Of a stretch of 64,000 nucleotides of DNA, positions 13,353 to 59,815 are shown piece after piece. The DNA is from Pyropia yezoensis (Eukaryota; Rhodophyta; Bangiophyceae; Bangiales; Bangiaceae). The notes under the pieces were generated by a model. That model did no database searches and was not told where the DNA came from. It was given only the letters and a program-made list of their open reading frames with translations. The position numbers were made by a program, and so were the translations under genes. The DNA is taken from the NCBI GenBank assembly GCA_009829735.1, contig CM020620.1, positions 24,712,020 to 24,776,019 of the forward strand. Reading direction: 5' to 3'. Position 1 is the stretch's first letter. Each line of letters opens with the position of its first letter.

Positions 13353-13383
<31 letters not shown>

Positions 13384-24679: not shown

Positions 24680-24681
24680 GT

Positions 24682-26796: not shown

Positions 26797-26798
26797 TA

Positions 26799-30916: not shown

Positions 30917-32833
30917 CTAGCGTTCCATATGGCCACCCCCACCACTATAGGGACCGCCCGACCACGAACCCCCAGGGTCGTAGGCCGGTAGCGGAGGGGC
31001 GTAACCCACTCGGGAGGGCCCCGGAGTGGAAGCACTGGGAGGGGCCCGCCGACTCGCGGACCCATCCCCGTCGTAAGATAGATGTCCGGAGGTACTCCCT
31101 CCGTGACGCGGAAGCTGCTGCTGAGTCGACAGCAGCCGTTGGACAAACTCGTGTCCAACCGCGAGGCGAGTGACCTCAGCTGCCAATGACTGTCGTGCCG
31201 TGGCTGAGTCGCCCGACGCGAGGAAGTGACTGACACGCCGGGTGACCCAAGCCAACGTGTCAAGGGAGGCCACGAGTGAGGCCTCCACCGTGGCGTCATA
31301 CATGATGGCTCCCAAGTTGGGAAGCATCTCGCCAACGCCACGCGCAATCGGCATGGGTACCGGAGTTCGGACCCGTAGCGAACCCAACGCCACGTCGGGG
31401 AAGGGCTCGAGGAACTGGAAGGGTGGAGCCTGAGTCGGCTCCACACCCCCCGAGGTCGGAGTCGCGACCCGCGGGGAAGTCGTCGGCACAGCTCGCCCGC
31501 GGCTTCGAGGGGCTCCTCGATGAGCACCACGACGAGTCGTCGCCGATGATGTCGCCCACCCAGAGCCAGGGGGCGACGTAGAGGGAGTAACCCCCTCTGC
31601 GTAGGGAAGGGAAGAGTCCCCCAACCCCTCACGCAAGAACAGCTGTCCCTGCACCAGAGTATGGGTGACATGGACGAACTCCCGGGGTGGCTCACTCTCC
31701 AACCCCGGCTCTGGACGCTTGTTGCGGCGGAGGAAGGGTTCCAGCTGCGCCCAATCGAGTCGATTGTGCAGGGTGACCATACCCTTAAGGAGGAACGGAG
31801 CCAGGTCCCCCGCGCCCAAGGCTAACCAGTGGAAGCCAAGGGTTTCCATACCCTCCACCAGAGCCGGTGGGAGGTGCCACAGGTAACCCCGATGGACTAC
31901 ATCGGAGTACCAGCCCCGAGTCACCACGACCACCCAGTGCGTGGCGAGGTAGGCGAAGACCCGGTTACCCTCCGAGCTGGAGCGTAGCACGGAGCCAAAG
32001 TAGGCAACGAGGAGGGGGATCCGAGCCGGAAACCCACAAGGTACCTCCACTGTCTCCCACCACCCTGGGAGAAAAGGGTACTGGTGCTCACGCTCCTCCA
32101 GAGGTACGTGGGTGAACTCCACCCGCGACCCGTGGATGAGGAAGCCCGAGGAGCCCCGGAGTCGGAACTCCTCTCGCACCACGCCGTGTTGGGCGTGGGC
32201 GTCCTCTCCGCCCAGGTAGGGACGGGGAAGGGCACACCACTCGGTAGACACAACCGCGTGGGTGTCGTCGATCTCCTTGTCGCCCGACCCCAAGGCGAGG
32301 GAGGTTGACAACGCCTGGACTTCAGGCGCGTCCGCCAGGCAGAGTAGCGCTGGTAGGTCGCAGACCACCCCATCAGGTAGAGTCACCTGGTTGGGGTACC
32401 GACGAGTCCGGCGGTACCATACGTCGGTCCGCCGCGGCTCGGGGATGATCAAGTAGACATCCTTGAGCTTGCAGTCGGGAAGCTCCCCGACTGACTTGGG
32501 AGGCGCCCAGGCTCGGGGCCCCATAGGAGGACGGGGCCGCGGCGGGAGTAGCAGCCGTGACTCAGGAAGGCGGGGGATGGGAGTTACATCCCCTTCCGCC
32601 ACCGGGTTGGAAGACCCATCCCCCGGTGGGACCACGGCCGAGGGGGCAGTAGGAGGTGATGGGGCGGGGACGGCTGAGGCGGCCGCCTCCGACCCTCGCC
32701 CGGGACGAGTCGTCTCCATGGCCGACCCCCGGCTGAGAGACTCCTCAGTCCCGAGGGCCTCCTCTCCCGTCCGTCGCTTGTCCGACAGAGACGTCGGAGA
32801 CGGGGACAAAGGCCGACTCGGCTCACCCGCCAT
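30917..32833 (-). CDS. Element 1 antisense accessory ORF, conserved in element 2
   Basis: A long open frame runs on the strand opposite gag-pol, between pol and the 3' LTR. It is open from 33256 to 30917. I chose ATG 32833 (MAGEPSRP) because the part upstream is a 94-bp tandem repeat read as low-complexity; this gives about 638 residues. After a disordered Pro/Ser-rich start it has a first conserved block (VYLIIPEP, then VWYRRTRR, VTLPDGVVCDLPALL). A second block follows (LLVAYFGSVL, then GYLWHLPPALVEGMETLG and LHNRLDWAQLEPFLRR). Near the C-terminus comes a helical block (SLAAEVTRLAVGHEFVQRLL). The same order of blocks appears in the antisense ORFs of element 2, although the DNA is strongly diverged. 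I recognise no known family and no catalytic motif. An antisense transcript must exist for it to be made; its promoter would lie in 33260-33806 or in the LTR. Confidence 0.72.
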   Translation of the reverse strand: MAGEPSRPLSPSPTSLSDKRRTGEEALGTEESLSRGSAMETTRPGRGSEAAASAVPAPSPPTAPSAVVPPGDGSSNPVAEGDVTPIPRLPESRLLLPPRPRPPMGPRAWAPPKSVGELPDCKLKDVYLIIPEPRRTDVWYRRTRRYPNQVTLPDGVVCDLPALLCLADAPEVQALSTSLALGSGDKEIDDTHAVVSTEWCALPRPYLGGEDAHAQHGVVREEFRLRGSSGFLIHGSRVEFTHVPLEEREHQYPFLPGWWETVEVPCGFPARIPLLVAYFGSVLRSSSEGNRVFAYLATHWVVVVTRGWYSDVVHRGYLWHLPPALVEGMETLGFHWLALGAGDLAPFLLKGMVTLHNRLDWAQLEPFLRRNKRPEPGLESEPPREFVHVTHTLVQGQLFLREGLGDSSLPYAEGVTPSTSPPGSGWATSSATTRRGAHRGAPRSRGRAVPTTSPRVATPTSGGVEPTQAPPFQFLEPFPDVALGSLRVRTPVPMPIARGVGEMLPNLGAIMYDATVEASLVASLDTLAWVTRRVSHFLASGDSATARQSLAAEVTRLAVGHEFVQRLLSTQQQLPRHGGSTSGHLSYDGDGSASRRAPPSASTPGPSRVGYAPPLPAYDPGGSWSGGPYSGGGGHMER

Positions 32834-32896
32834 CACGCGACCAACCTTGACCGACTCGGTGAGGTTGAGCACGGGGGGGGACACGACCCACACCCC

Positions 32897-33064
32897 CCAC
32901 CGACAACGAAGAAGCCCGACACAAGGGGCAGCGCGGGGAAGACACAACCCCGCCAACGAGGACAAAGGGGGGGGAACACAACCCACGCCCCCACCGACAA
33001 CGAAGAAGCCCGACACAAGGGGCAGCGCGGGGAAGACACAACCCCGCCAACGAGGACAAAGGAA
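32897..33064. repeat. Direct repeat, period 94 bp
   Basis: A block of about 74 bp beginning CACCGACAACGAAGAAGCCC occurs twice, at about 32897 and 32991. It lies upstream of the likely start of the antisense ORF. Confidence 0.85.
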
Positions 33065-33259
33065 GGGGGAAGACACCACCCCAACCAACGACACCAACCG
33101 CACGGCGGGAAGAGACAGACCCGCCGACGCGAGGGAGCAGCGGCGGGAAGGCACACACCCGCCCGCACACACGAAGGGGAGAGAAGACCCCGCACCGGCG
33201 GCCGAGTCCCACCGCCGGCGACCGAGTGCAACACCCCCAACTCGGGGTGCGCACACCCC

Positions 33260-33793
33260 TCAACCCTGACTAGAAAGGGGGGGAAGGAGTGAGGAACACC
33301 CCGCAGAGAGCCAGCTGGGGGTGGATCGAGCTGAAGGGGGGGACACAACCCGACCCCCCGAGAGCAACCGTACCCCAACTGAAGGGGCAGGTGCAGGTCG
33401 ACGTTCCGAGTGAGAACGTCGACGCCCTACTCCTCCAGTTGAGGGGCAGGGGGTGTGGCGGAGGTACGCCGACACCCAGATTAGGGGGCTCACCCACACG
33501 TGAGTCCACCCGTGGAGCACCCTGACCAGGTGGGGGACGACTTTCCCCCACACCTGTTTCGCGTGGAGGGGGCTCCTCTACCCAGTGTCAGGGCAGAGAG
33601 CGCACCCCACGGAGAGGGACTGCCTCTCCCGGAGGGCCCCGCCGGACGCGAGTGCAACCCCGGCGTAACCCTGGTGCACGCTAGACGCCAGCGATGCACC
33701 GTACTTTGCATCTCAACTCGGGAATTGCATCCTCCTCTCCCGGTCACTGCGACTCGCCGCTGATTGGACGTCCACCGGGACGGCTGGACTTTT
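33260..33793. other. Element 1 3' untranslated segment
   Basis: Sequence between the antisense ORF and the polypurine tract. No gene is seen on either strand. It would hold the upstream region of the antisense transcript. Confidence 0.5.
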
Positions 33794-33806
33794 GAGAAGG
33801 GGGAAA
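33794..33806 (+). other. Element 1 polypurine tract
   Basis: GAGAAGGGGGAAA directly abuts the 3' LTR. This is the expected position and composition for the plus-strand DNA primer. Confidence 0.9.
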
Positions 33807-34345
33807 TGTGGGAGATTGGGCCGGAATTCGGTACCAATACTTTGAAGATTCGGGTCAAGTGGACCTGACCGGAAGTCGAAATTCACCCGACCCACGATGG
33901 TGAAACTTCTGACTTCTGGACGGAAATTCGACTAGGACTTCCGACATACTAGAGCAGGGTAATGCTGCTGGTATTTGTTTCTTGGGATTTTTGCACGGGA
34001 GCCAGACGGATTTCTACGCTTTGAGTTCTTTGCATGTGGAGTGATATGATTGGTTTGTTTGAGGGTTCATTTTCTGAGTGTTTTGAGGGGTTGCGTGAGC
34101 GTGTGAGGAGGGTTGATAAGGAGGGACAGCAAGGCGGGGAGGGCCCACCTTGGCTGGCCAAGCAAGAAAACACCGTCTGGCTCCGACACATCTTGTTCGT
34201 GCCTTGGTGAGTGGACCCGCTCACCACACGCAAGTTCCGTGTTCGGCTGTGTGGAGGTGCTTGCTTCCGGTGTCCCAAGTTGGGATATCGGCAATACTCC
34301 TCTTCCTTCCCTGACTCGGGGTTGGTGCTTGGGAGTACTGCTACA
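33807..34345 (+). repeat. Element 1 3' LTR (539 bp)
   Basis: Same length and, by eye, the same sequence as the 5' LTR. It is followed by the CGAGC target duplication and then by satellite sequence in phase with the left partial unit. Confidence 0.95.
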
Positions 34346-34350
34346 CGAGC
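34346..34350 (+). repeat. Target site duplication of element 1 (right)
   Basis: CGAGC, identical to 24136-24140. Confidence 0.92.
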
Positions 34351-35365: not shown

Positions 35366-35436
35366 GAAGGCAGATGATTGTCCGCATTCGGCGTCCCTTA
35401 TTTGGGGCTGTATGTGTCATGTACATCATGATTGTC
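35366..35436. other. Spacer between satellite and right arm
   Basis: About 70 bp with only weak similarity to the matching spacer of the left side. No feature was recognised. Confidence 0.5.
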
Positions 35437-35913
35437 AGTGCATGATTCTGGGCTTCGTGTCAGCGACTGACACGTTTGTCGCGCTTGGGGGCAATCATGA
35501 TCTCTCCCGATGCGGAAAATGTTTGTCGGCTCGATAAAGTGGCATGACAGCCTCTCTCACTGTCTGTCTGGGCGCAGCGCGGCCGGCGTGCGCCCACGGG
35601 CGCCGCATGCGCTACATCCGGCACACCATGGCCAGAAGCACCCCCAGAACCCACTTTTTGTGCGCTGCGCGTGGTGCACGGGCGGGCGTGCGAGGGCCCC
35701 AGCGGGGCCGTCAGACCCCCGAAAAAAGCTTATAACCTCTGTTTTTATTCCAGCCACCACCAGTCCATCCATTCCGCACCACACGCCCACCTCATACCTG
35801 CCGTGGTGACCCTAGACCTTCCTGGCGGCGTTCGTGCTGCTGCCTCTGCTTCCTCACCCCCTGCTCCACACGGCGCCGTCACTGCGACCCGCCCCCCTCC
35901 TGTGCTCCTGCCG
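35437..35913 (+). repeat. Right arm of a long inverted repeat
   Basis: Reverse-complement partner of 23413-23887, with only scattered base differences. It holds the hairpin GTGTCAGCGACTGACAC (35457-35473) and a likely 3' splice site, TTTTTATTCCAG, ending at 35753. It runs directly into the Cys-rich gene. Confidence 0.9.
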
Positions 35914-36807
35914 CCCCACGGCCCCCCGCGACGCCTTTTGTCCGCGTCCCTGTGCTTGTGCAAGCCGATTGCTACGTGTCACGGCGTGTGTATCGACGCA
36001 TCCTGCGAACTTTTCGGGCGGTCCAAGATGGTTTGGTGCTTCCTTTGCGGGCTGGACTCTACGCAGTTTGGCCGCAACCAACGCTCATGCTCCATGCGCA
36101 AGTTTCGGTGTGTCCGGGGGCTGCCGGCCGATCATCCGTTTCGACACCCTGGGCCAGATGTGCCCTGCACCAACCTCAAGTGCTCTCATGCGCGAAAGTG
36201 CGCCAAGTGTCACGACATTGGTCATGACAGCGACACCCTCGAGCTCGACGCGGAGCGCTACGCCATCAACGAGATGTCGAAGGGACGGTCCATCACGAGA
36301 CGAGCCAGCGCAGGGCCCATGAAGGGCATCGACTTCGTCTGCCGAAACGTGGACGATACCAAGGCCGCAAGCATGTGTGCTGGCATCCGAGCCGGCTGCG
36401 CAGCCAGGTTCAACGAGCGGCAAGTCAAGGCATCGTCTGTCGGTTTGATGGCTGGCAACCTCTTTGCGGTTGGCTCTTCCCCCGCGGACACGATCGATTT
36501 GATTGGACAAGGGGAGATCAAATCAAGCACGATGCACAAATCCAACAAGCGGGCGCATGAGTTGGCGATAGGCGGCAGGAAAGCGGGAATGAGCGCTGTT
36601 AATGCTGCCCTGGCTGCCGCAGAGCAGATTCGGCGCGAGAGCAGCAGTGGGAGGCAGGAATTGCACGGAACAGCTCTCACCGAAATTTGGAGGAATCTAT
36701 CGGAGGAACCTGCGGGGGGGGGGGGGGGGGGGGGGGGGGGGCGGGCGGGCTCGCTTCGCTCGCCCGCCCGCCCGGCTGGCCCCGGCCCGTCGGGCACAGC
36801 CGGATAG
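35671..36807 (+). CDS. Cys-rich zinc-binding-type protein of the large element
   Basis: The open frame has no ATG before its cysteine cluster (35671 is GTG). The start is therefore probably in an upstream exon, joined at the TTTTTATTCCAG acceptor ending at 35753. The core (about 35945-36240) is dense in Cys and His: LCLCKPIATCHGVC, DASC, VWCFLCG, RSCSMRKFRC, then VPCTNLKCSHARKCAKCHDIGH. The C-x4-C-x-H-x3-C-x2-C-H arrangement suggests two or more zinc sites. A helical part follows (36300-36640), with VNAALAAAEQIRRE. The frame then enters a 28-nt G run and a GC hairpin before TAG 36805. I recognise no family. Its position beside the orphan ORF, helicase and transposase suggests a DNA-binding role in the same large transposon. 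The 5' part is duplicated in the left arm. Confidence 0.55.
   Translation: MVHGRACEGPSGAVRPPKKAYNLCFYSSHHQSIHSAPHAHLIPAVVTLDLPGGVRAAASASSPPAPHGAVTATRPPPVLLPPHGPPRRLLSASLCLCKPIATCHGVCIDASCELFGRSKMVWCFLCGLDSTQFGRNQRSCSMRKFRCVRGLPADHPFRHPGPDVPCTNLKCSHARKCAKCHDIGHDSDTLELDAERYAINEMSKGRSITRRASAGPMKGIDFVCRNVDDTKAASMCAGIRAGCAARFNERQVKASSVGLMAGNLFAVGSSPADTIDLIGQGEIKSSTMHKSNKRAHELAIGGRKAGMSAVNAALAAAEQIRRESSSGRQELHGTALTEIWRNLSEEPAGGGGGGGGGRAGSLRSPARPAGPGPSGTAG
36714..36775. repeat. G28 run followed by a GC hairpin
   Basis: Twenty-eight consecutive G (36714-36741) run into GCGGGCGGGC, a short spacer and GCCCGCCCGC, an inverted repeat of 10-bp arms. The run is G-quadruplex-prone and the hairpin very stable. 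It lies inside the 3' end of the Cys-rich frame. Confidence 0.9.
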
Positions 36808-49000: not shown

Positions 49001-49243
49001 CACATCCTGGCGACGCAAATCAAAGCACTGTACGTCCGCAGAGAGATGGCGTGTTGCAGCTGTGTAGGTAGTGCGCGCCGTGATGATGAAAGAAAACAGC
49101 TTGTCCAGTAGCCCGCGCGTATACACGAGCCAGCGTTTGCGCTTGTTCCGCCTCCGCATGTTGAACAAACCATGCTCCGCACCATCATACTCCACCGTCC
49201 GTAAGCAATCACTCTTGTCGCACTTCCAAGAGCCAACAACGAC
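46040..49243 (-). CDS. Zisupton/KDZ-type transposase with Ulp1 protease, exon 2
   Basis: Second exon, 1067 codons, of the gene whose exon 1 is 61693-60224. It opens with VVVGSWKCDKSDCLRTVEYDG and GLFNMRRRNKRK, continuing the region before the transposase core. The KDZ/Zisupton-type core includes VCPHVITLGFRCLFRAES (about 47690), VIFYDVACKLDKN with the likely second Asp (about 47600), CILDRPH and HSCSPVY, and TQAAEVSHS with the likely Glu followed by MSPVTYMVHKMA (about 47430). The C-terminal 250 residues form a Ulp1/SENP (C48) cysteine protease: RWLNDEIMNSF, NHWIAVIIN (His), VVLYDPL (Asp), PKQMDAVSCGV (Gln and catalytic Cys). The protease may act on SUMO-like tags; a Ulp1 domain next to the transposase is known in Zisupton-type elements. 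No stop or frameshift was found. Confidence 0.85.
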   Translation of the reverse strand, partial: VVVGSWKCDKSDCLRTVEYDGAEHGLFNMRRRNKRKRWLVYTRGLLDKLFSFIITARTTYTAATRHLSADVQCFDLRRQDVVKLGTAMLRAFVITPETGRCTLCGPDPEFIIIDGQAIGCTDPDDAQPVRVEVECPVLDIPATKLCVVEDPGLRAALTKVLRSSAALTETQIKLLRKWHDDMMTHERPTTGGSAAYIFFTFFPLGSDAPRRDAAPDAVVPDGSDRHDPHPSAGAAQSARSRKRTAEGSKRTLEASLKLGANGELTLGGSGPPAIQKCETWRDRTGICAPNFRQYHRDDDGTWLAAMPFLQAMLAETVSGMFQAHDEDAVRLAANTLRLLPAGAWREVTDALDGVGFVSSFIGQLAPVIDADARFRVALGQLLRAAVDVENSIDKAFDKAARSPETQARGARNAHYCDKWGATPTPSDFREWLATQAGIDAAALDDPTVCFEYFADLRRVRPGVKDSEAAKRRVGYRGKERHAADMEGELDACMKAFSIKCGLTQGVFNVVCPHVITLGFRCLFRAESVGEALSVVLERFPKLPKVIFYDVACKLDKNALRRVRPILRTHGVRCILDRPHSITHSCSPVYMPDESLGSTAGVATQAAEVSHSIAVANRTSLAYMSPVTYMVHKMAQVAMMNVRKLHRLSQDSITAENDHVPLAPFYHSHLSRDCVRGSSCICQTTAAPPRTIDGVISARLGAVSLYPRGSSERLGPGEVVAGADPSVSAGRLVGHAGPVVNEEQHNQYVDRSTHAGTLVEPGVSPLDKTPASTGRGPSFDPLSTSLLTVPEADFVLSFTDGREASSAVRPSNKASAVLLVSDFLLLCSGRWLNDEIMNSFVALINDRDVKARCARSAIPSLTERVSLPPDAPVLPRTHMFNTYFFSRMVERTRPYDYAGVQNWGRKSNLHMDDVDIIIVPINVDSNHWIAVIINIRDRSVVLYDPLMGSGQERFISHLRRWVTDEVGQHLGQEAALDWGVEQWPVSDGRDLPKQMDAVSCGVLAVADCFAVGAAAAFSHFDIHVLRNRVAIALFHDDLTMTGTCDSPRSTVRDQYDVRVSPIAPLPDP

Positions 49244-49374
49244 CTGAATACAAAGCAACAAGGAATGCAAAACGCAGATCCAAAGAAAGTGACAGTCCAG
49301 ACCAGACAAGCAAGTCAGAATATGAGAAACTCAGCGCTCGGCGATAACCTGAAATCTTCCAAAACAGACAGTGT

Positions 49375-49379
49375 GGACA
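49375..49379 (+). repeat. Target site duplication of element 2 (left)
   Basis: GGACA precedes the 5' LTR and is repeated at 60180-60184 after the 3' LTR. Confidence 0.92.
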
Positions 49380-49742
49380 TGTAGCAATATGGTTGTCCGT
49401 ATTGTGACCCTAATATTAGGGGGGCTACTTCTAATCCTTAACTTTCAATTTGAGAGTCCGTACTGGTCACGGTATCTATAAGTTACGTACGACCAGAGGG
49501 ACTTCCATCTTGGGGTGGAGGGTAGTTAGTAGTGTCTCCGAGGGTTTATAACGAGGGGGCCGGCGGCGAATCCACCGCCGGCCAAGGTAGAACAACAAAC
49601 CCCTCCCATTTGGGCTCCCATCTTGGTCCCGTGGCTTGCGCTCCAAGGACAGCAACCTTGGCCTCCCGGTGACGTTGGTGCCGATCCCCCTTGGTGAGTG
49701 TTCCCTGAGAGTGGACGTGCGACGGATCCCTATTGTGCTACA
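49380..49742 (+). repeat. Element 2 5' LTR (363 bp)
   Basis: Begins TGTAGCAATATGG and ends ATTGTGCTACA. It contains TTG|GTGAGT (donor at 49694), as in element 1. Confidence 0.95.
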
Positions 49743-49743
49743 T

Positions 49744-49761
49744 TGGTGGAGCAGCAGGGGA
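49744..49761 (+). other. Element 2 primer-binding site
   Basis: TGGTGGAGCAGCAGGGGA starts one base after the LTR and resembles the site of element 1. Confidence 0.7.
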
Positions 49762-49967
49762 CGGGTTTCCGTCACCCTTGTGGTGACGCCGTCTTCGGCC
49801 CTGGCACACGGATAGGGATCCGGTCCTTTTCTTGTACTCGTGGTGTTGCGACCTGTTCGATTGTGTTGAGCTTTTACCCTTGACTGTGACCTACTGTTAC
49901 TCTCCCCAATCTACCCCCTCGCTCTCTTATTCGTGGTGATTGTTACGTCGGTTGACTGATTGTGACT

Positions 49968-52148
49968 ATGTCTGCCCAAGAGACGGGGAACGTTCAAGAT
50001 GACGGATCGGCGTCGACGCCGACTCCGGAGGTGACTACGGGAACCGGGATCGGGAACCCGATCGACAACATTGAGACGCCAATGCTCTCCGGTGCCGGAT
50101 CGACGTTTGGCACGGCTCGGACGGCAGGAGGCGGGGTTCCGCCGCAACTGTCATCGACCGACCTCACTCCGCCGCCTCCTTCACCAGGGGATTCCCTGAT
50201 GGCATCATTGGCCCGCATCGAGGCCCGGTTTTCCGGACTCGACGCTCGCCAGGAGCGGACGAAGGACGCAATGGCAGTGTTGATGTCAACACGCCACACG
50301 ACGGGACCCCGTCGTGTTCCTCCCACACCGGTACGGTTTGAACCGGCCGGACTACTTTCGGAGTCCACCAGGGTCGACCCCGGTGCAGCAGCTCCCGGAC
50401 AACCCCCGGACACAATGGGGTATGGATCCGACTCGTCGGCAGAGTTGGAACGGAGTCACACGGAGCGATACGCTCGGAGCACCCGAAGCGGACTCCGCGG
50501 ACACGACCCGGCGGATACTTACGCCGGGGGAGAGTCGGTTATTGGGGGAGGGGGTACCCTCTCACAGTACCCCCACGACGAAGGAGGCCAGGCAACTCGG
50601 GTCCCCGAGGTACCGACGCCTGAAGTACCACCTTCAGTGGTGGAAGCTATGACCGCGCAGGTAACTGCGAGCCTACTGAAGCGGATGGAGTCCGATGAGT
50701 TTGCTCATCAACTGGCTAAGCGACTGGATATCCAGGACGCTGACACGGAGATCGTCAACGAGGTCTTCCGGTCGGTTCTTACTCCGGAACGTTATCGTTT
50801 GGAGGACCGCTCTACCACCGTATCGGAATCGATGCGTAATACGTCGCATCGAGCGATTCGCTCTATGCAGACCCTTATGAAGGGAGTCCCTATGTTCGGG
50901 GGCCCCAACGGACGTCCGTTGGCAGTCATTGGCTTCTTGACTAGCTTCAAGGCAGCCGCGGACAAGGCGCTCGTCAACGAGGGGCTGGCCCTGGAGATCC
51001 TCCCGTTCTTTGTTGATGAACGGGTGCGAGGCATTCTTCGCCAGGCATCCCCGATGCCGGGAATGAGGGTCGCGGCCACCCCCATGGATTACCGTGGGAT
51101 ATTGAAGGAGCTGCTTAGCAGCTACCTCAGTGAGGACAAGTGCGAGGACCACTATCGGGCCCTTCGCACTGCCACCGCCCAGTCCTGGGAGGATGAAGAG
51201 ATGTTTGGACGCCGGATCCAAGAGCTCGACTACGAGCTGGGGAAGCTCCTCGGAGAAGGGGAGCTACGGGCCATCCTGTTCGCAGGAGTACCCAACTACG
51301 TGCGGATATCCGCACGGGGCGCCAACACGGCACGGACGAACTTCAGTCGACTGATGCATATGTGCAAGTCCCTAGGGGACGCCTACCGGGTTCTACACCC
51401 GGAGTGTGCCTTGGCCCAGCCCAAGGGTGAGGGAGGCAAGCCCAGTCTTACCCCGGTACCGAGGCAAGAGAAGGTGGAACGTAAGGCCGCACCAGTACTG
51501 GTGGCGACCGAACATACCCCGACGGGTGAGGATGAACCTCTAGTCGACCAACAGGGCCACCTGTTGCTACCGGCGACGCCGGTGATTGATGAACATGGTA
51601 CGGTAGCGTACATCGCCCCGGCTGGAACCCAGTTCCAGGTCAACGAAGGGACGGGACGGCGCGTCCCGTATGTGCGGACTACGGGGTACTCCCCGGTGAC
51701 GGGTAACCCTCACCAACCCTTGCCAACATGGGCGGTGCGCACGGAGGCACCCCCGCAGATTGCGGGCCGACCCAACCGGTTGGGGGAGTCCATGTTCCGG
51801 TTGACCCAAGGACCCAAGGCCTACCAGGGAGCAGGCACTCGGGCGCCCGAGGGAGGCAACCGCAGCTACGGGGCTACCCCGATGCGAACTCAAGGGGGGA
51901 CCGGCACGTCCGGATGTATGTTGTGCGGAGATCCCCAGCACTGGGTGTCTTCCTGCCCACTCATCCCCGAGGAGTCTCGGCGGGCAGCGGCGCAACGCAA
52001 GGCATCCACAGGGGGGTATCCCGCCAGAGCACCCGGACCCGCACCGGGTAGGCAGCCAGCTCCTGGTGGAGTACTGTCCGTCGAAGAGGCACCTCCTCAG
52101 CCGGATGGCCCGGCTGACAGCACCCTACCAAGGGCGGGAAACGAGTAA
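49968..52148 (+). CDS. gag: Element 2 Gag
   Basis: Structural protein of 726 residues from ATG 49968 (MSAQETGNV). The open frame extends two codons upstream only through GTG. The first 230 residues are Pro/Ser/Gly-rich. A capsid-like helical region spans about 235-480 (for example VVEAMTAQVTASLLKRM, then VIGFLTSFKAAADKALV). A CCHC zinc knuckle lies near residue 647, C-ML-C-GDPQ-H-WVSS-C. The protein ends PRAGNE before TAA. As in element 1, the last codons carry G GGA AAC. Confidence 0.92.
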   Translation: MSAQETGNVQDDGSASTPTPEVTTGTGIGNPIDNIETPMLSGAGSTFGTARTAGGGVPPQLSSTDLTPPPPSPGDSLMASLARIEARFSGLDARQERTKDAMAVLMSTRHTTGPRRVPPTPVRFEPAGLLSESTRVDPGAAAPGQPPDTMGYGSDSSAELERSHTERYARSTRSGLRGHDPADTYAGGESVIGGGGTLSQYPHDEGGQATRVPEVPTPEVPPSVVEAMTAQVTASLLKRMESDEFAHQLAKRLDIQDADTEIVNEVFRSVLTPERYRLEDRSTTVSESMRNTSHRAIRSMQTLMKGVPMFGGPNGRPLAVIGFLTSFKAAADKALVNEGLALEILPFFVDERVRGILRQASPMPGMRVAATPMDYRGILKELLSSYLSEDKCEDHYRALRTATAQSWEDEEMFGRRIQELDYELGKLLGEGELRAILFAGVPNYVRISARGANTARTNFSRLMHMCKSLGDAYRVLHPECALAQPKGEGGKPSLTPVPRQEKVERKAAPVLVATEHTPTGEDEPLVDQQGHLLLPATPVIDEHGTVAYIAPAGTQFQVNEGTGRRVPYVRTTGYSPVTGNPHQPLPTWAVRTEAPPQIAGRPNRLGESMFRLTQGPKAYQGAGTRAPEGGNRSYGATPMRTQGGTGTSGCMLCGDPQHWVSSCPLIPEESRRAAAQRKASTGGYPARAPGPAPGRQPAPGGVLSVEEAPPQPDGPADSTLPRAGNE

Positions 52149-52198
52149 GAGGAAGGACGACCGGGGGGCGCTGGGGTAACCCAAGCAAGCCACCCCGG
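52136..52198 (+). promoter_or_regulatory. -1 ribosomal frameshift signal, gag to pol (element 2)
   Basis: Heptamer G GGA AAC at 52136-52142 is in the gag frame, six bases before the end of the stop codon. The -1 frame is open from here through pol with no ATG nearby, so pol needs frameshifting. Downstream, CCGGGG (52161-52166) can pair with CCCCGG (52193-52198), enclosing a TGGG-GTAA-CCCA hairpin. The 18-nt spacer is longer than usual, so the true stimulator may be a different fold. Confidence 0.72.
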
Positions 52199-55100
52199 AG
52201 TACCGCGGGGAAAGCCCCACGGAGAGCGCGGTTGAGCCGGCGCCGCATCAACCCCCGGGTACACCTTCCGGCCCCAACGACACGGCGTCAGGGGATTGAT
52301 GACCAACCTCCAAGGTTGGGAGGAGAGGACGGGATGCCCCGTCACGTTGAACCAGCCAAGGGTCCTGTCCAGGATGCCCGAGCCACACCGGATATCGGTG
52401 TAGGCCACGTACTGTTCACCTTGGAAAACTTCAAGGTATCAGCTACACTGGGGGTTGACCCCCAGTCGACACGATCGTACTACCCTGTACTGGATACAGG
52501 GGCTGGACCCAACCTTATCCGGAAGGACACCCTCCCGGACAAGTGGCTTCCGCGAGTCAGAGTGACTCGGGGACCCACCATCAAGGACGCGAATGGTCGC
52601 CTCATTCGTACGACCGCAGCGATGTCGCTGCTGGTTACCATCGGGGAACTGACTACGGAAGTTGACTTCCTGGTATGTGAGACCCTATCGGTGCCCTGCA
52701 TACTGGGATGCACCTTCATCAACGTTCACGTCGATGCAATCCGGCCAGGCCGGAGGACCGTCGAGCTGCAAGAAGCCGACGGGACGAAGCGAGGACATAC
52801 GGCTATCGTCAGGGACCTGACGCTACAAGGGAGCCACGTTAACGTGGCTGAGGTGTACGCAAGCGTCGAGCCGAAGACACTTCGGTTGGCCAAGCGAACT
52901 CGCTTTGAGCCGTTGTCGGAGACAGTCCTCCCGGTTAACTGTGACCTCGCAGGCATCTGCAGAGTCCAGTCCAACCTGCGGACGTACAAGCGCCATGGGT
53001 TGACCATGGCCAACGGTCTCATAGACCTCCCAGCAGGAGGGTCGTCCCTCCTAGTGATGGCGAACTATCGCCGTAAGGCAGTCACCCTCCCGAAGGGAAC
53101 TATCCTCGGGATTGCCGAACTCTACGAAGGAGATATCCTTACCCCTGACAAGGAAGGTCACGTGGAGCCACTTGAGGTGCTGGCGGTCGCCGAGACCACC
53201 GAGCGACAGCAACCCGATGACGGGAAGCCTAGTCGACCATCATTACCGGCGGATATTCCGCCGAAGGACCAAGAAGCATTGAAGGCACTGGCTGAGGCTG
53301 ACCTCGACCACCTTCCCCCTTCGGTAGCCGAAGGGGTACGACGGATGCTTAGAAAGCATGACGTCATGTGGACAGGCGGGGCCTTGGGTACCATTGGGGC
53401 AACCCAACATCGTATAGACCTGGTACCAGGCGCACGACCCGCCCGGTCACAACCGCACCGAGCGGGACCTATGCAACGAGAGATCGTTGATGGAGAAGTG
53501 AAGAGGATGAGCGAAGCGAAGGTGATACGACCTTCGATGTCGGAGTGGGGTGCCCCAGTCGTTATCGTACCGAAGAAGGATCAAACCCCTCGGTTTTGCA
53601 TCGATTATCGACGCCTCAACTTGGTTACCAAGAAGGACTCATACCCTTTACCAAGGATGGATGAATGCATCGACTCCCTGGGGGAAGCTACGGTGTTTAC
53701 CACCATCGACTGCAATGCCGGATACTGGCAGATCCCGGTGGCGGACGAGGATATCCCCAAGACGGCATTCGTCTGTCACAGTGGAGTGTACGAGTTCCTA
53801 AGGATGCCCTTCGGATTGTCCAACGCCCCCGCTACCTTCCAGCGGGCTATCGACATTATACTGTCGGGGGTGAAGTGGCGTAACTGCCTAGTGTACCTCG
53901 ATGACGTCATCGTATTCTCGCGTCACATGGATGACCATGTGCAACATGTTGACGAGGTACTCACCCTCTTGAGGAACGCCGGGGTAACCCTGCGTCTGAA
54001 GAAGTGCGCCTTCTTCCAACAGACGGTCGAGTATCTAGGCCACCAGATAACCCCTGGTAAACTAGGGGTACTCGAAGCCAATACCCGGGCACTCCGGGAT
54101 GCTCGGTTCCCTAACACCCAGACGCAGCTCAAGAGCTTCCTGGGAATGTGCAATGTATACCGACGGTTCGTCAAGGACTTCGCTCGGATAGCTAAACCGT
54201 TAACGGTTCTTACGAGCAGTACCTTACCCAAGGTACTCCAACCCCCTTCGCCTAGCGAAGAGGAAGCATTCGAGTCGCTGAAGCGAGCCCTACTAGCCCC
54301 ACCCGTCCTTGCGTTACCGCACAGACGGGGTACCTTCGTCATCGATGTCGATGCGTGCGACACCCAAGTGGGATGCACCCTGTTACAGGGGGACACGTTG
54401 ATCGGTTCCGATAACGTTATCCCGGACCTACGTCCGGTAGGGTACTTCAGCCGGACACTCAACCCGGCTGAGCGTAACTATAGTGCCACCGAGCGTGAAT
54501 GCCTCGGAGTTATATGGGCAGTGCAACTGCTCCGCCCATACCTGGAGGGCTCCAGGTTCATCGTGAGGTCCGACCACGAACCCCTACGATGGTTCCTCAA
54601 CCTTGGTGACAAGGATTCCGATAGCCATGGGAGGCTAGCCCGATGGAGGCTGAAGATGGCCGAGCACGACTACCGCACGGTGTATAAGGCTGGGTCAACC
54701 CACCATCTCGGAGACGCATTGTCTCGACTCGACACCCCGAGCGGGGATACCCGCCCGGTGGACGAGGACATCCCGGTGGTACCGGTGTGCATGGTGGGTA
54801 ATGCTACCCAAGGTATGGTTGACCATACCATGGCACACCTTGCGTGCCCATTGACCCTCGCGGACTTCCGCGAGGCACAGGCCAATGACGATGACTGTAG
54901 ACATCATCGTGCTAACCTCCTGGCCGGTACGGCCGGCATCTTCTCCGAGAACGAAGACGGACTCATATACCGGCGGGCACCCGCCGATGGACGACATCAA
55001 GTCGTGGTTCCCGTGTCCTTACGGCAAGCCGTCATGGAACGAGAACATGAGAACCCTACAGCCGGACACCCGGGGGGTTCACGTATGTTCGCAGCAATGC

Positions 55101-56323
55101 GAAGGTTCTTCTACTGGCCAGCAATGGCCGTCGACGTGGTCGACCACGTAAGGGGATGCCACCCCTGTGCACGTAACCGCATGAGTCTACATAGGCAGGC
55201 GTCTGCCATGAAGCTATTCCCACCTGATGGGCCCAACGAGCAGGTCGCTATCGACATACTCGGGCCACTTCCGATAACGGAAGAAGGGAACAGGTACATC
55301 CTGGTCATGTCTGACCGGTTCACTAAACTGTCAAGAGCGGCAGCCATCCCGAATGATACGGCATACACGATCATGAACGCAGTGGTTGACCACTGGATCA
55401 GTGCATACGGAGTCATGAAGCAACTCCTCTCCGATAACGGAGCAAACCTTACGTCGGCATTCTGCACTAAGGTCCTGGGCATGTTCGGTATCGAACCACG
55501 TCGGGCATCCGACTACCACCCGCAGTCCAACGGGCAGGTGGAGCGGTTCAACCGCACCATCGTAAAGATGCTACAGTGCTACGTGGCCGAGCACACGAAC
55601 ACTTGGGACAGGCTTCTGTCCGTACTCACCCTGGCATACAATGCCAGGCCACATCGGAGCACAAACATCGCCCCACTGGAGTGGGTCATGCCACTAGGCG
55701 TCGGTAACCTGACGCTGCCACCCGGCAGGTGCACTCGGTATGATACACCGAAGGGCCGACCGGCCGAACGCATCCACCTAGCTTGGTTGGCCAAGCTATC
55801 GTGGATGGTTCCTAAACTCAAGGGTGCCCTTGACAGAACACAACTTCGATATAAGAAGAACTTCGACGCCCGACTACGGGTGCGCAACGCAACCCTGATG
55901 ACAGGTGACTGGGTCTATATCAGACACCAGAAGTTCCGAGGGAACAAGCTTATGCAACCGGTCAAGGGACCGTACCAGATCCTCCACAGAGATGACCACT
56001 CTGTCATCCTGCACTCCGATACGGAGATCCAACGCATCAGTATGAATGATGTCACACCTGCTCCGAAGCCGGAACAGCCTCAGCCGGTACCGGCTGGGTT
56101 GCTACATGAAGCTCTTACAACCCACCGGTCAGATGACCCGGTGGGACCGGATGGGATTCCATACCAAGTAGAGAGCGTGGTCGGACATACCGACCCGGAC
56201 CTACCAGGACCCTGGTACGTCAAGGTTATGTGGGTCGGGTACGACTCACCCACCTGGGAACAGGCGGCAAATATACCCCGCCAACTCCTCATGCCTTATA
56301 TGAGGCGACGACGCCTACTGTAA
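52145..56323 (+). CDS. pol: Element 2 Pol polyprotein with chromodomain
   Basis: Read in the -1 frame after gag. The first start-like codon is TTG 52232, so I place the beginning at the frameshift. Domains, counted from 52232, are: protease PVLDTGAGPNLI (about 84); reverse transcriptase RFCIDYRRLN (about 453) and YLDDVIVFS (about 554); RNase H VIDVDACDTQVG (about 702) and GDALSRLD; integrase zinc finger (ENPTAGHPGG and CHPCARNR); integrase core AIDILGPLP (Asp), LSDNGANLTS (Asp) and NGQVERFNR (Glu); a GPY module (VKGPYQIL); and a C-terminal chromodomain-like end, YQVESVVGHTD then VKVMWVGYDSPTWEQA. The catalytic residues are intact and there is no internal stop. Product sizes depend on protease cuts that cannot be read here. 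Confidence 0.94.
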   Translation, partial: VRGRTTGGRWGNPSKPPRSTAGKAPRRARLSRRRINPRVHLPAPTTRRQGIDDQPPRLGGEDGMPRHVEPAKGPVQDARATPDIGVGHVLFTLENFKVSATLGVDPQSTRSYYPVLDTGAGPNLIRKDTLPDKWLPRVRVTRGPTIKDANGRLIRTTAAMSLLVTIGELTTEVDFLVCETLSVPCILGCTFINVHVDAIRPGRRTVELQEADGTKRGHTAIVRDLTLQGSHVNVAEVYASVEPKTLRLAKRTRFEPLSETVLPVNCDLAGICRVQSNLRTYKRHGLTMANGLIDLPAGGSSLLVMANYRRKAVTLPKGTILGIAELYEGDILTPDKEGHVEPLEVLAVAETTERQQPDDGKPSRPSLPADIPPKDQEALKALAEADLDHLPPSVAEGVRRMLRKHDVMWTGGALGTIGATQHRIDLVPGARPARSQPHRAGPMQREIVDGEVKRMSEAKVIRPSMSEWGAPVVIVPKKDQTPRFCIDYRRLNLVTKKDSYPLPRMDECIDSLGEATVFTTIDCNAGYWQIPVADEDIPKTAFVCHSGVYEFLRMPFGLSNAPATFQRAIDIILSGVKWRNCLVYLDDVIVFSRHMDDHVQHVDEVLTLLRNAGVTLRLKKCAFFQQTVEYLGHQITPGKLGVLEANTRALRDARFPNTQTQLKSFLGMCNVYRRFVKDFARIAKPLTVLTSSTLPKVLQPPSPSEEEAFESLKRALLAPPVLALPHRRGTFVIDVDACDTQVGCTLLQGDTLIGSDNVIPDLRPVGYFSRTLNPAERNYSATERECLGVIWAVQLLRPYLEGSRFIVRSDHEPLRWFLNLGDKDSDSHGRLARWRLKMAEHDYRTVYKAGSTHHLGDALSRLDTPSGDTRPVDEDIPVVPVCMVGNATQGMVDHTMAHLACPLTLADFREAQANDDDCRHHRANLLAGTAGIFSENEDGLIYRRAPADGRHQVVVPVSLRQAVMEREHENPTAGHPGGSRMFAAMRRFFYWPAMAVDVVDHVRGCHPCARNRMSLHRQASAMKLFPPDGPNEQVAIDILGPLPITEEGNRYILVMSDRFTKLSRAAAIPNDTAYTIMNAVVDHWISAYGVMKQLLSDNGANLTSAFCTKVLGMFGIEPRRASDYHPQSNGQVERFNRTIVKMLQCYVAEHTNTWDRLLSVLTLAYNARPHRSTNIAPLEWVMPLGVGNLTLPPGRCTRYDTPKGRPAERIHLAWLAKLSWMVPKLKGALDRTQLRYKKNFDARLRVRNATLMTGDWVYIRHQKFRGNKLMQPVKGPYQILHRDDHSVILHSDTEIQRISMNDVTPAPKPEQPQPVPAGLLHEALTTHRSDDPVGPDGIPYQVESVVGHTDPDLPGPWYVKVMWVGYDSPTWEQAANIPRQLLMPYMRRRRLL

Positions 56324-56779
56324 CAACCCAACCGACACCGACTTCGGCTGTTGGGGGGTGAGGCTTATACCTACTAAGTAGGGTGTGACATGGTTACGGC
56401 AGACTTAGGTTTCTAAGTCGAACCAAGCTTAGGTAACTAAGTAGAGCTAAGTTTAGGTAACTAAGTAAAAACCTGAACCTTAATAAGTTAACTTAAAGGT
56501 AAAGGCTAACTCCGATAATATCGAAGTAACTAGGGAGCTTACACGGGAGGATGACCTCCCCAAGCCAAGACGCAAAGTGAGGGAGGATAACCTCCCCAAG
56601 CATGAACCAACCGGAAGAAGTTGGACGGGAGGCAAGGCACCACTGAGCCAGAAGGGGTACCCCCCAGGCCAGCAAACAGAGGCAAGCAACGCCCCCAGCG
56701 GGGGATGAGTTTATACTCACTACTACCCGGCTACCATAAGGGTTGCCGGGGCCCTCTCCCTCACAAACAATAGCACTCC
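56324..56779. other. AT-rich spacer with 24-bp repeats
   Basis: Separates the convergent ends of pol and the antisense ORF. From 56404 a 24-bp unit (CTTAGGTAACTAAGTAGAGC and variants) is repeated three times, with many in-frame TAA and TAG codons on both strands. It may supply 3' ends for both transcripts. Confidence 0.6.
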
Positions 56780-57913
56780 TCAGTGGGTAGACCCACTGCC
56801 CGAGGGAGGCCACTCACGCGTAAGCGCGTATACCTCCGTGCTCCACCGGTCGGCAATGTCACGACGGTCGATCACCCGCGTTACCTCGGTGCATAGCTGG
56901 ACGAGGGTGCTGCGGCCAGCCTCCACGTCCTCCAGAGCTTTCTGGAGGCGGTCAAGCACGCCATCGAAGCAACGCGCTGACCCAACCAGCGCAGCACCGG
57001 GGGGGATATCCCCCCAGCTAACAGAGAGACACTCCCGCATTGCACGGACAACAAGGGCGTCAACGCCCTCATACCAGAGACGGGGACCCCCGTCATGTAG
57101 GACAGAGGCGGGAGGTGACACTGGCGCAGCCAGAGGAGCCACAGGAGCCGACACGGCTACCACCGGAGCCGGTGGCACCTGATACGAGGCCCGGTAGGAC
57201 CCTACCGAAGGGGCTCCACCGTAACCACGGCGGTACTCCGCCCGACGACGGGACACCTCACGCTCCCCACCCACAGAGCCCCACTCTCGGGGACGACGGC
57301 CAACCGCCGCCGGTATCGGGTTACCGAACCACGGGGCAAGGACCTGAAGAGGGTCATGGATAACCATGGGAATACCCAGGTCAGCAACAGCCTCGGTGGA
57401 TGCCCACCCATGGCAACTGGGCTCACCCGGCTGAGTACGCCGGACACGCAACGAGTGACGAGGCAAGGGGGAAGCCCCAGCCTGCGGGTCCCGGTACGGG
57501 GGAAGGGCCAACACCCCAGCCCAGTTCACGGCATCGTGAACAGCCAGCAAGGCTTCGAACTCCCGGGCCAACCCGGTCTTGGCGGCTATCTGATCCACGC
57601 CCAACTGCGCGATGTGCCGACGGACACCCGTCGGAAGATGAAACAGACGACCCTGCCGGCGGACGGACAGCAAGAAGGAGGAAGCCTGCCCGAGGGTAAC
57701 CTCAAGGGTGAAGGTACCCTGCAACGGGTGGACCGGTCGGGAGGCCAACACACTCCCGAAGTATCGGAGACAAGGGCCGGTGTCAAACCGGAAAGCAGGG
57801 GCGGGTTCCCACCCCTCCTGCCATAGCGGCGGACGCACGGGAGTGTATACAGGCGCACGACCGTTGCCGGTCTGCAACGCACACGGTATATCCGTGCGGA
57901 ACGCATCCGCCAT
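56780..57913 (-). CDS. Element 2 antisense ORF, distal half
   Basis: Open from TTG 57952. The first ATG is 57913 (MADAFRTD), giving about 377 residues. Blocks shared with the single antisense ORF of element 1 are: LRYFGSVLASRP against LVAYFGSVLRSS; GRLFHLPTGVRRHIAQLG against GYLWHLPPALVEGMETLG; VHDAVNWAGVLALPP against LHNRLDWAQLEPFL; and the C-terminal helical block TLVQLCTEVTRVIDRRD against SLAAEVTRLAVGHEF. The upstream half ends inside this frame (57949) and is -1 related, so the two may be one protein made by a frameshift, or one gene split by an indel. Function is unknown and no catalytic motif is seen. Confidence 0.65.
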   Translation of the reverse strand: MADAFRTDIPCALQTGNGRAPVYTPVRPPLWQEGWEPAPAFRFDTGPCLRYFGSVLASRPVHPLQGTFTLEVTLGQASSFLLSVRRQGRLFHLPTGVRRHIAQLGVDQIAAKTGLAREFEALLAVHDAVNWAGVLALPPYRDPQAGASPLPRHSLRVRRTQPGEPSCHGWASTEAVADLGIPMVIHDPLQVLAPWFGNPIPAAVGRRPREWGSVGGEREVSRRRAEYRRGYGGAPSVGSYRASYQVPPAPVVAVSAPVAPLAAPVSPPASVLHDGGPRLWYEGVDALVVRAMRECLSVSWGDIPPGAALVGSARCFDGVLDRLQKALEDVEAGRSTLVQLCTEVTRVIDRRDIADRWSTEVYALTREWPPSGSGSTH

Positions 57914-57948
57914 GACACCATGGTTACGTCGCCAGCTTGACGCCGACT

Positions 57949-59226
57949 TCAACCCGCCATAGGCGGGTAGGGAGCCGTCAACGACAGATACGGGGCTCCC
58001 CCCGGGTGATAGTCAAAGTCGGGATACCGACCGGTACTGCCCACCGTCTCCCCAAACGCAACCGGCTCCGCCGCCGACGCAACCCCCCGAGCACTAGCCG
58101 GGTAGTCAATCTCCCGCGGCAACGCGGGAGCAATCAGGTCGCATATCCCGAAGTTGGGGTCGAGGTAGACCTCACCCCGTCCCACCCGGGTGCGCCAGAG
58201 CTGCGCATGCCGGTCGTCCGGCTGACTCAGGATCCAATGGTGTTCCACCCGGACCGCGTTCGGCTGGTTGACCAGCCGCACCAACTCCCGCTCCCAGCTC
58301 GGGTCCACCTTGACGCGCCGGGAGGACTCTCCACGGGGATGCACCAGGTGGAAGTCCACCCGCATACGCCCATCGGACTCCATCGACTCTTGCACCGTGA
58401 GGCCTCGAACCCGAGCCACCAAGTCGGACATCGACATGGCGGGTTGACCCGCCGCCACGGCGACGCCGCCACCCAACGGGGCAACCCGGGCAGGACCAGG
58501 AAGAATCGGGGGCGCCGGGGGACGCACCACCGGCAGAGGGGCCGACGCCGGAGGTGGACGAGGCCGAGGAGGAAGAAGAAGGGCGGGCGCCCGCCCGGAG
58601 TAGCTCCCGGTGTCAACCGCCATGGGGGAAGGAGCGTCTTGACCGCTCGACACCCGCGGCACCGCGGGTATGGTACCGGCGCCGGCACCACCCGTCGACG
58701 TAGCCCCCGCCTCGGAAGGGGAAGGCACTTGGACAGCCTCCGGAGCCGGAGCACCGGCCGTGCGGACACCCGCACCGTCTTGACTCGCCGCACCGGGTGT
58801 CGCACCGCCACCACCACCCGCGTCAATGTCGGGACCGCCTCGAGGGGTCACCGCCCGGACACCCGGACCACCTTGACCAGCCGGAGTCGGCTGCGGGTCG
58901 CCACCTCCGCCGCAGGGCGGGCCATCTTGGGGTAGCTGCGGTGAGCCGGCACCGGCACCAGGCTCCATCCGGGCAGCCGGCAGAGGGGGGGTAGAAGCCG
59001 CCACGCGCGGTTGACCGCCGGGTTGACCTCCGGCTGACGGCACCGTCGTGCCGCTGCACACGGACGACAGTCCTCCGGCCGACAGACGGACGGACGCAGC
59101 AGGCGCGTCGTCGTCAGACGAGCTCACCCCGTAACGCGCGGCGTCGGGACCGACAGGCGCGTCGTCCTCCATCTCCTCCCCGATCAGGAGGTCTTCCTCC
59201 TCTTCAAGCACCTGGGGATAGGACAT
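57949..59226 (-). CDS. Element 2 antisense ORF, proximal half
   Basis: Open from 59457. The chosen start is ATG 59226 (MSYPQVLEEEEDLLIGEE), because the part above it is low-complexity; this gives about 425 residues. An acidic start and a Pro/Gly/Ala-rich linker (to about residue 270) precede a folded part. That part holds MSMSDLVARVRGLTVQE, VDFHLVHP and HHWILSQPDDRHAQLWRTR, then YLDPNFGICDLIAPALP. The last two align with VYLIIPEPRRTDVWYRRTR and LPDGVVCDLPALL of element 1. It ends PMAG just where the distal half opens. No known family was recognised. Confidence 0.62.
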   Translation of the reverse strand: MSYPQVLEEEEDLLIGEEMEDDAPVGPDAARYGVSSSDDDAPAASVRLSAGGLSSVCSGTTVPSAGGQPGGQPRVAASTPPLPAARMEPGAGAGSPQLPQDGPPCGGGGDPQPTPAGQGGPGVRAVTPRGGPDIDAGGGGGATPGAASQDGAGVRTAGAPAPEAVQVPSPSEAGATSTGGAGAGTIPAVPRVSSGQDAPSPMAVDTGSYSGRAPALLLPPRPRPPPASAPLPVVRPPAPPILPGPARVAPLGGGVAVAAGQPAMSMSDLVARVRGLTVQESMESDGRMRVDFHLVHPRGESSRRVKVDPSWERELVRLVNQPNAVRVEHHWILSQPDDRHAQLWRTRVGRGEVYLDPNFGICDLIAPALPREIDYPASARGVASAAEPVAFGETVGSTGRYPDFDYHPGGAPYLSLTAPYPPMAG

Positions 59227-59803: not shown

Positions 59804-59813
59804 AAGGGGGGGA
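59804..59813 (+). other. Element 2 polypurine tract
   Basis: AAGGGGGGGA followed by TA and then the 3' LTR. Position and composition are as expected. Confidence 0.85.
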
Positions 59814-59815
59814 TA

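What the first reader, a model, noticed from the sequence alone, without database searches (positions are those of the whole stretch)
30917..59226. A homologous antisense accessory protein in two unrelated gypsy elements
Seen: both retrotransposons encode, opposite to gag-pol and between pol and the 3' LTR, a protein with the same order of blocks. These are a WyRtR...CDL block, a YFGSVL block, an xHLPxxxxxxxxxLG block, an HNRLDWA/HDAVNWA block and a C-terminal EVTR helix. The elements are otherwise strongly diverged (no LTR similarity, different gag). Known: some plant Ty3/gypsy elements carry extra antisense ORFs. Inference: conservation of protein blocks through such divergence means selection, so this is a functional, possibly undescribed retrotransposon gene. 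It could regulate Gag, act in silencing suppression or guide targeting.
Basis: partly seen in the sequence, partly recalled or inferred. Interest (0 to 1): 0.88.

Follow-up and report, generated by a model that had tools for sequence, protein, structure and literature searches.

The report
Antisense gene family in nori retrotransposons
Several related jumping genes in a red seaweed carry, on the opposite strand and just after their enzyme genes, a conserved protein gene of unknown fold that selection keeps intact, an arrangement known from some land-plant and fungal elements but here with a protein family that matches nothing in the domain and structure libraries searched.

Summary
Both window elements are young Ty3/gypsy LTR retrotransposons of a red alga (Pyropia yezoensis by scaffold sizes). 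Each has a long reverse-strand frame between pol and the 3' LTR, and the proteins are homologous over ~220 residues (hhalign score 41, E 2e-4; maximum of 200 shuffles 29). A third family (F4; RT 80% identical to element 1) has the gene in the same place in 4 of 4 copies read. It matches element 1's protein at E 6e-46 and element 2's at E 4e-9. Selection is purifying: dN/dS 0.09-0.12 in F4, 0.26-0.41 in the element-1 family; in the element-2 C-terminal half 0.09-0.23 in five of seven pairs. Corrections: the elements are not unrelated (pol 40% identical, gag detectably homologous); the C-terminal 'EVTR helix' is not significant; the element-2 frame is broken in the window copy but open in most scored copies. 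No Pfam, PDB or fold match; no membrane segment; not gag or pol. Kind: antisense additional ORF, as in plant Grande, RIRE2, Retand and fungal Boty, but without Retand's TRP28 domain. Best reading: a nuclear, nucleic-acid-binding regulator of the element. Existence and selection are shown; function is inferred.

The parts
24141..24679 (+). Element 1, 5' LTR (TSD CGAGC at 24136-24140)
   Evidence: 539/539 identical to 33807-34345
24976..26760 (+). Element 1, gag open frame with CCHC zinc knuckle
   Evidence: zf-CCHC E 7e-4, just under the curated cut-off
26748..30788 (+). Element 1, pol open frame (RT, RNase H, integrase; weak chromodomain)
   Evidence: Pfam RVT_1 2e-35, Integrase_H2C2 4.5e-19, Chromo 0.007
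30917..32833 (-). Element 1, antisense gene, 638 aa from an ATG shared by the 8 copies looked at; its stop lies 128 nt from the pol stop (convergent)
   Evidence: 56 of 69 scored genomic copies unbroken to the end of the query; dN/dS 0.26-0.41 for the ten copies with more than 45 differences
31748..32452 (-). Conserved core of the element-1 antisense protein (CDL block to HNRLDWA block)
   Evidence: profile alignments
31340..31639 (-). Arg-rich basic linker, predicted pI 11.6
31115..31339 (-). C-terminal helical stretch (homology to element 2 not significant)
32873..33082 (.). 94-bp tandem repeat, 2.2 units, starting 40 nt upstream of the antisense ATG; translated upstream matches in other copies 46-100% identical; possible antisense 5' UTR or promoter region (inference)
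33807..34345 (+). Element 1, 3' LTR (TSD CGAGC follows)
49380..49742 (+). Element 2, 5' LTR (TSD GGACA at 49375-49379)
   Evidence: 99.2% to 59811-60179
49956..52148 (+). Element 2, gag open frame
   Evidence: 23% identical to element-1 gag, E 1.3e-12
52118..56323 (+). Element 2, pol open frame
   Evidence: Pfam RVT_1 5.5e-36; 39.7% identical to element-1 pol over 1308 aa
57949..59226 (-). Element 2, antisense gene, N-terminal part (this copy is broken in frame)
   Evidence: one open frame in 83 of 102 scored copies
56780..58012 (-). Element 2, antisense gene, C-terminal part in another frame of this copy
   Evidence: dN/dS over the last 405 codons 0.09-0.23 in five of seven pairs, 0.48 and 0.57 in the other two
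57518..58230 (-). Conserved core of the element-2 antisense protein (spans the frame break)
59816..60179 (+). Element 2, 3' LTR (TSD GGACA follows)

Best explanation
The frames are one gene, inherited by a clade of red-algal Ty3/gypsy elements and kept by selection on its protein. It is read from the strand opposite gag-pol, convergent with pol. SHOWN: position, homology in three families, open frames in most scored copies, purifying selection, no relation to gag, pol or known domains, no membrane segment by hydropathy, Arg-rich basic tracts (an Arg/Ser tail in F4). INFERRED: it is transcribed from its own promoter between its ATG and the 3' LTR, so any integrated copy can supply the protein; the protein enters the nucleus through its Arg-rich tracts, binds element nucleic acid (RNA more likely than DNA, given the RS-like tail of F4), and regulates how much element RNA is made, processed or exported. 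This is the kind of role that the papers read propose for plant antisense additional ORFs, by comparison with nuclear retroviral antisense proteins such as HBZ.
For: Homology: F1-F4 E 5.7e-46, F4-F2 E 4e-9, F1-F2 E 5.7e-6; hhalign with 150 shuffles. Selection: F4 dN/dS 0.09-0.12 in 5 of 6 pairs, p 4e-15 to 1e-21, the sixth pair having 3 differences; F1 0.26-0.41 for the ten copies with more than 45 differences from the window copy, minor-allele columns at codon positions 1/2/3 = 16/3/27 in 16 copies; F2 last 405 codons 9/2/30 in 20 copies. None of the 15 F1 copies compared with the window copy has an indel over 638 codons. Similar length elsewhere: 633 aa in P. vietnamensis and 636 aa in an unnamed relative, against 638. 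Arg-rich linkers and the F4 Arg/Ser tail. KD hydropathy maximum 1.38. Analogy: nuclear GENE23 with its own promoter, predicted DNA-binding TRP28, nuclear HBZ (passages).
Against: No transcript, localisation or binding data. The fold is unknown: AlphaFold pLDDT 45 and 33, no PDB match. Arg-rich tracts also arise cheaply in a GC-rich genome. The N-terminal half of F2 is weakly constrained (dN/dS 0.39-1.04); two of seven F2 pairs are not significant in the C-terminal half (0.48, 0.57); some F1 pairs are at 0.56-0.81, as expected for copies that decay after insertion. Three of the six database relatives of F1 are shorter (499-532 aa). The clear RS-like tail is in F4 only.
Confidence: 0.5

Rival explanations
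1. The protein is an anti-silencing factor: it binds the element's own non-coding DNA or small-RNA machinery and keeps copies active, so each family's protein follows its own target and diverges fast between families.
For: Between F1 and F4 the antisense protein (37%) is less conserved than RT (80%), the pol C-terminus (65%) and gag (49%), while it is strongly constrained within F4. This fits a family-specific partner. The families are numerous and the window copies young.
Against: The N-terminal part of pol diverges nearly as much (42%), so no special arms race is needed. Nothing is known here about silencing in this alga.
Confidence: 0.22
2. The protein joins the pre-integration complex and helps nuclear entry or target choice.
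For: Basic Arg-rich tracts; a nuclear role is proposed for plant elements of the same arrangement.
Against: Element 1's pol ends in a weak chromodomain of its own. Family 3 (integrase 26-29% identical) shows no homologue in the 4 kb after pol of the one copy read, so integration in this genome may not need it.
Confidence: 0.12
3. The antisense RNA is the active product (self-limiting dsRNA or copy-number control) and the protein is incidental.
For: Convergent transcription would give an RNA complementary to the 3' part of the genomic RNA; raised for plant elements in PMC7264820.
Against: An RNA function does not predict conservation of codon position 2 and dN/dS near 0.1 or the alignment of near-equal full lengths across relatives.
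Confidence: 0.05
4. It is an Env-like or movement protein placed in reverse.
For: It sits in the env position between pol and the 3' LTR.
Against: Reverse strand; no membrane segment (maximum 19-residue hydropathy 1.38).
Confidence: 0.03
5. Chance open frames in GC-rich DNA; the block resemblance is an artefact.
For: The window holds other long open frames in GC-rich stretches.
Against: Homology beyond all 200 and all 150 shuffles, three families, relatives in another species, purifying selection.
Confidence: 0.01

Closest known systems
Antisense additional ORFs (aORF-3R) of plant gypsy elements: maize Grande GENE23, rice RIRE2, Silene Retand
   Same: Same place (pol to 3' LTR), same reverse orientation, present in most copies, unknown function, no env features; element 1 also has tandem repeats in this region, as about half of the Retand elements surveyed do (passages of PMC7264820 and PMC11963269).
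   Different: No TRP28/Transposase_28 match (the genome search had no working control); red alga, not flowering plant; Retand is described as non-chromovirus, while element 1 has a weak chromodomain. Sequence homology to GENE23 or the RIRE2 protein could not be tested here.
brtn of Boty-like gypsy elements in Botrytis cinerea
   Same: Extra antisense gene in a gypsy element, between pol and the 3' LTR (passages of PMC7264820 and PMC8365987; the original paper was not seen).
HBZ/APH-2 antisense proteins of primate T-cell leukaemia viruses
   Same: Protein gene on the antisense strand of a retroelement, nuclear product (passages of PMC11963269).
   Different: Deltaretroviral; homology not tested; here the function is only inferred.

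Membership tests
Antisense additional ORF (aORF-3R) of gypsy elements | Lies between pol and the 3' LTR | tested here: met
   Elements 1 and 2; F4: pol end, antisense frame, 3' LTR in order in L072
Antisense additional ORF (aORF-3R) of gypsy elements | Reverse orientation to gag-pol | tested here: met
Antisense additional ORF (aORF-3R) of gypsy elements | Present in most copies and conserved like a protein gene | tested here: met
   Of copies found by the gene itself, 56 of 69 F1 unbroken to the query end and 83 of 102 F2 with a frame of at least 700 aa; starting from RT, 4 of 4 F4 copies read, out of 34 listed, carry it; dN/dS
Antisense additional ORF (aORF-3R) of gypsy elements | Transcribed from its own antisense promoter; nuclear product (Grande GENE23) | not testable with these tools
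   Needs RNA and cell data
Retand-type antisense protein | TRP28 / Transposase_28 domain (PF04195) | tested here: not met
   No PF04195 match in the F1, F2 or F4 proteins with limits of E 5-10, though HMMER's filters drop most matches above 0.1; genome search with PF04195 found nothing, but its controls rang nowhere either
Retand lineage | Non-chromovirus pol | tested here: inconclusive
   Chromo E 0.007 in element 1, below the curated cut-off; none reported for element 2; no reference RT tree was built
Env-like additional ORF | Sense orientation and transmembrane segments | tested here: not met
   Reverse strand; maximum KD19 1.38
Boty brtn | Sequence homology to brtn | not tested
   No brtn sequence at hand

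The most novel reading that the evidence does not exclude
An undescribed protein family, specific to a clade of Bangiales gypsy elements, evolved independently of plant TRP28/GENE23 and retroviral HBZ as an antisense-encoded nuclear regulator. Each element family's version recognises its own element's RNA or DNA, which would make antisense accessory genes a recurrent, convergent solution to self-regulation in the retroelements of plants, fungi, animals and red algae.
Probability: 0.35. Interest if true: 0.75.

Novelty: new variant of a known kind. Interest (0 to 1): 0.6.

Why it matters
LTR retrotransposons are the predominant repeats of this crop alga's genome, about half of which is repeats (PMC7423979, passages). 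The element families with this gene are abundant: at least 69 F1 genes, at least 102 F2 genes, and 34 F4 RT rows before the list was cut off. A selected accessory gene shared by them is a handle on what controls their activity. If it proves independent of the plant TRP28 domain, antisense accessory genes arose more than once, which makes the open question of what such genes do testable in a second lineage.

Tried and rejected
Rejected: chance ORF; duplicated gag or pol (hhalign against gag/pol E 0.15-0.52 with 7-28 columns); Env; TRP28. The DUF6214 hit on family 2 has E 0.05-0.1, below its cut-off, and was dropped.

Led nowhere: AlphaFold models with pLDDT 45 and 33 and their PDB searches, no match at E of 0.001 or better; viral-contig scan, no relative; combined-profile protein search, two family-2 proteins only; searching the genome for further families with P0006 listed F1 copies only, and with the element-2 RT rows at 99-100% only, list cut off at 150. 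An early reading that family 3 ends 375 nt after pol was wrong, because the shared block ended where the fetched loci ended. It is replaced: a purine tract follows the pol stop at once in 18 of 30 loci searched with one pattern (L059 is the same copy as one of them; the other 12 were not examined further). That its LTR starts there is inferred; in the one copy tested the 5' LTR start was not found.

Literature: in the open-licence PMC library only. I saw listings with titles and starts of abstracts, often a part of the papers found (for example 12 of 738), and none of those listed announces this gene in a red alga. Subscription papers are not covered.
Full report
WHAT IS THERE. The window lies at C3:24712020-24776019 of a 107.5-Mb genome. 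The three large contigs (43.6, 34.3, 29.4 Mb) match the scaffold sizes given for Pyropia yezoensis in PMC7423979 (passages), and the nearest named protein relatives are from P. vietnamensis. The species label is therefore an inference. Two complete Ty3/gypsy elements are present with 5-bp target duplications, gag and pol frames overlapping in the same frame relation, and LTRs 100% and 99.2% identical, so both are recent insertions. Each has, on the reverse strand between pol and the 3' LTR, a long open frame: 638 aa from an ATG in element 1 (30917-32833), and two overlapping frames in element 2 (57949-59226, 56780-58012).

IS THE RESEMBLANCE REAL. BLASTP between the window proteins gives E 1e-4, for a stretch around YFG..LDW; between the element-1 protein and the N-terminal element-2 piece it gives nothing significant (E 0.95). 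Protein searches gave six relatives of the first at E 1e-3 or better, including a P. vietnamensis protein of 633 aa at 53-54% identity; three of the six are shorter, 499-532 aa. They gave four of the second, at 52-58% for the fuller P. vietnamensis ones. The two family profiles align colinearly over 216 columns, E 1.2e-4, hhalign probability 56%. Trimmed to the core: score 41, E 2.1e-4; 200 column shuffles peak at 29. The C-terminal helix is not significant (13 of 200 shuffles reach it), while the YFG..LDW block has E 1.1e-6.

A THIRD FAMILY DECIDES IT. The RT of element 1 finds 116 rows at 90% or more and 34 rows at 80-81% identity, in a list cut off at 150. I read the region downstream of pol in 4 of those 34 rows. 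All 4 carry an antisense open frame of 724 aa, 647 aa from the first ATG, in the same place. In one of these elements the order pol, antisense gene, 3' LTR is complete, with 468 bp of identical sequence at both ends. The F4 protein matches F1 at 36.8% over 288 aa (E 5.7e-46) and F2 at 24.9% over 189 aa (E 4e-9). F1+F4 against F2: hhalign 55.7, E 3.2e-6, shuffle maximum 25 of 150. The F1-F2 results do not depend on F4, and F4 was found through RT, not through this protein.

SELECTION. F4: dN/dS 0.09-0.12 in five pairs (p 4e-15 to 1e-21); the sixth pair has only 3 differences. F1: 15 further copies (seven top hits and eight picked for divergence) against the window copy. The ten with more than 45 differences give 0.26-0.41 (p 0.0016 to 5e-8); the five with fewer than 20 give 0-0.37 and say little. 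No indel in any of the 15; 14 of 15 have no stop codon inside the gene. Results the other way: F1 pairs L002-L006, L002-L007 and L006-L007 give 0.56-0.81, as expected for decay after insertion. F2: seven pairs against L014 were computed out of 19 possible. The C-terminal 405 codons give 0.09-0.23 for L009, L011, L015, L025 and L027, but 0.57 and 0.48 (not significant) for L010 and L013; the N-terminal half is loosely held in all seven (0.39-1.04). Five of these 20 copies are broken in frame. Pol C-terminus for comparison: F1 0.085 for L001-L002, 0.15 for L001-L006, but 1.33 for L002-L006 (18 differences) and 0.44-0.59 for pairs with L005, whose fragment differs strongly; F4 0.054 over 245 codons in the two pairs with differences, L074 left out because its pol frame is offset. 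Polymorphic columns with the minor allele in at least two copies fall at codon positions 1/2/3 as 16/3/27 in F1 (16 copies) and 9/2/30 in the F2 C-terminal half (20 copies).

COPIES. F1: 69 scored places for the query P0006; 10 list internal stops, 1 is split and 2 end early, leaving 56 of 69 unbroken to the query end. F2: 102 scored, 83 with an open frame of at least 700 aa, two of those with one stop read through. All are lower bounds, since the tool scores only the best candidates, and both searches start from the gene, so they do not say how many elements lack it. The window's element-2 copy is one of the broken minority.

HOW RELATED ARE THE ELEMENTS. F1-F2: pol 39.7% over 1308 aa, gag 23% (E 1.3e-12), LTRs no match better than E 0.007. 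F1-F4: RT 80%, pol C-terminus 65%, N-terminal pol 42% and gag 49%, antisense core 37%. A more distant gypsy family (family 3; 30 of 30 loci held fall in one cluster, its integrase 26-29% identical to F1 and F2) shows no homologue in the 4 kb after pol of the one copy read (best E 0.095), and its pol stop runs straight into a purine tract in 18 of 30 loci. So the gene looks like a clade feature, not a universal one; this rests on few copies.

WHAT THE PROTEIN LOOKS LIKE. Variable N-terminus, conserved core, Arg-rich basic linker (F1 pI 11.6, F2 9.8), helical C-terminus (predicted in both models); maximum 19-residue hydropathy 1.38, so no membrane segment. F4 ends in an Arg/Ser-rich tail; that it resembles SR proteins and nuclear localisation signals is recalled, not tested. 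No Pfam match above a cut-off, no PDB sequence match. AlphaFold models are poor (pLDDT 45, 33) and give no structural match. The fold is unknown.

MECHANISM. Shown: a selected protein gene in antisense. Inferred: own promoter (element 1 has a 94-bp tandem repeat just upstream of the ATG, in a stretch whose translated matches in other copies are 46-100% identical), nuclear entry, nucleic-acid binding, regulation of element RNA. Fast divergence between families with strong constraint within them fits a family-specific partner, which is also what an anti-silencing factor would show; I cannot separate these here.

KNOWN OR NEW. Antisense additional ORFs in this position are known in Grande, RIRE2, Retand and PvRetro13 and in fungal Boty; GENE23 is nuclear with its own promoter; 97% of Retand clusters carry TRP28 (passages of PMC7264820 and PMC11963269; brtn also named in PMC8365987, passages). 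The present family shows no TRP28 and is from a red alga. The listings of my paper searches showed no description of it. I file it as a new variant of a known kind: the arrangement is known, the protein family is new to the libraries searched.

Noticed in passing
23399-23912 and 35414-35927: A 514-bp inverted repeat (97%) flanks 228-bp tandem repeats; element 1 is inserted inside this terminal-inverted-repeat unit, in the tandem array.
   Followed up: partly
46040-49330 (-): 1096-aa open frame with a Ulp1-type C48 protease domain (E 1.4e-21) and a weak KDZ transposase match.
   Followed up: no
40538-43456 (-): 972-aa open frame with AAA/PIF1-like helicase domains.
   Followed up: no
62132-63221 and 21350-22221: Tandem arrays with units of about 155 and 190 bp.
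   Followed up: no
10001-14000: GC content 82-83% with long open frames on both strands, a warning against reading ORF length as evidence here.
   Followed up: no
L072:861-2798 (-), F4 antisense protein: Long Arg/Ser-rich C-terminal tail not seen in the F1 or F2 proteins aligned.
   Followed up: partly
P0005 and P0015: Relatives on ENA contigs of 2658 and 2873 bp; the size would fit transcripts, but the nature of the contigs could not be checked.
   Followed up: no
24680-24710 and 49743-49775: The sequence after both 5' LTRs is alike (TTGGTGGA.CAGC.GGGGA), suggesting the same tRNA primer in both elements.
   Followed up: no
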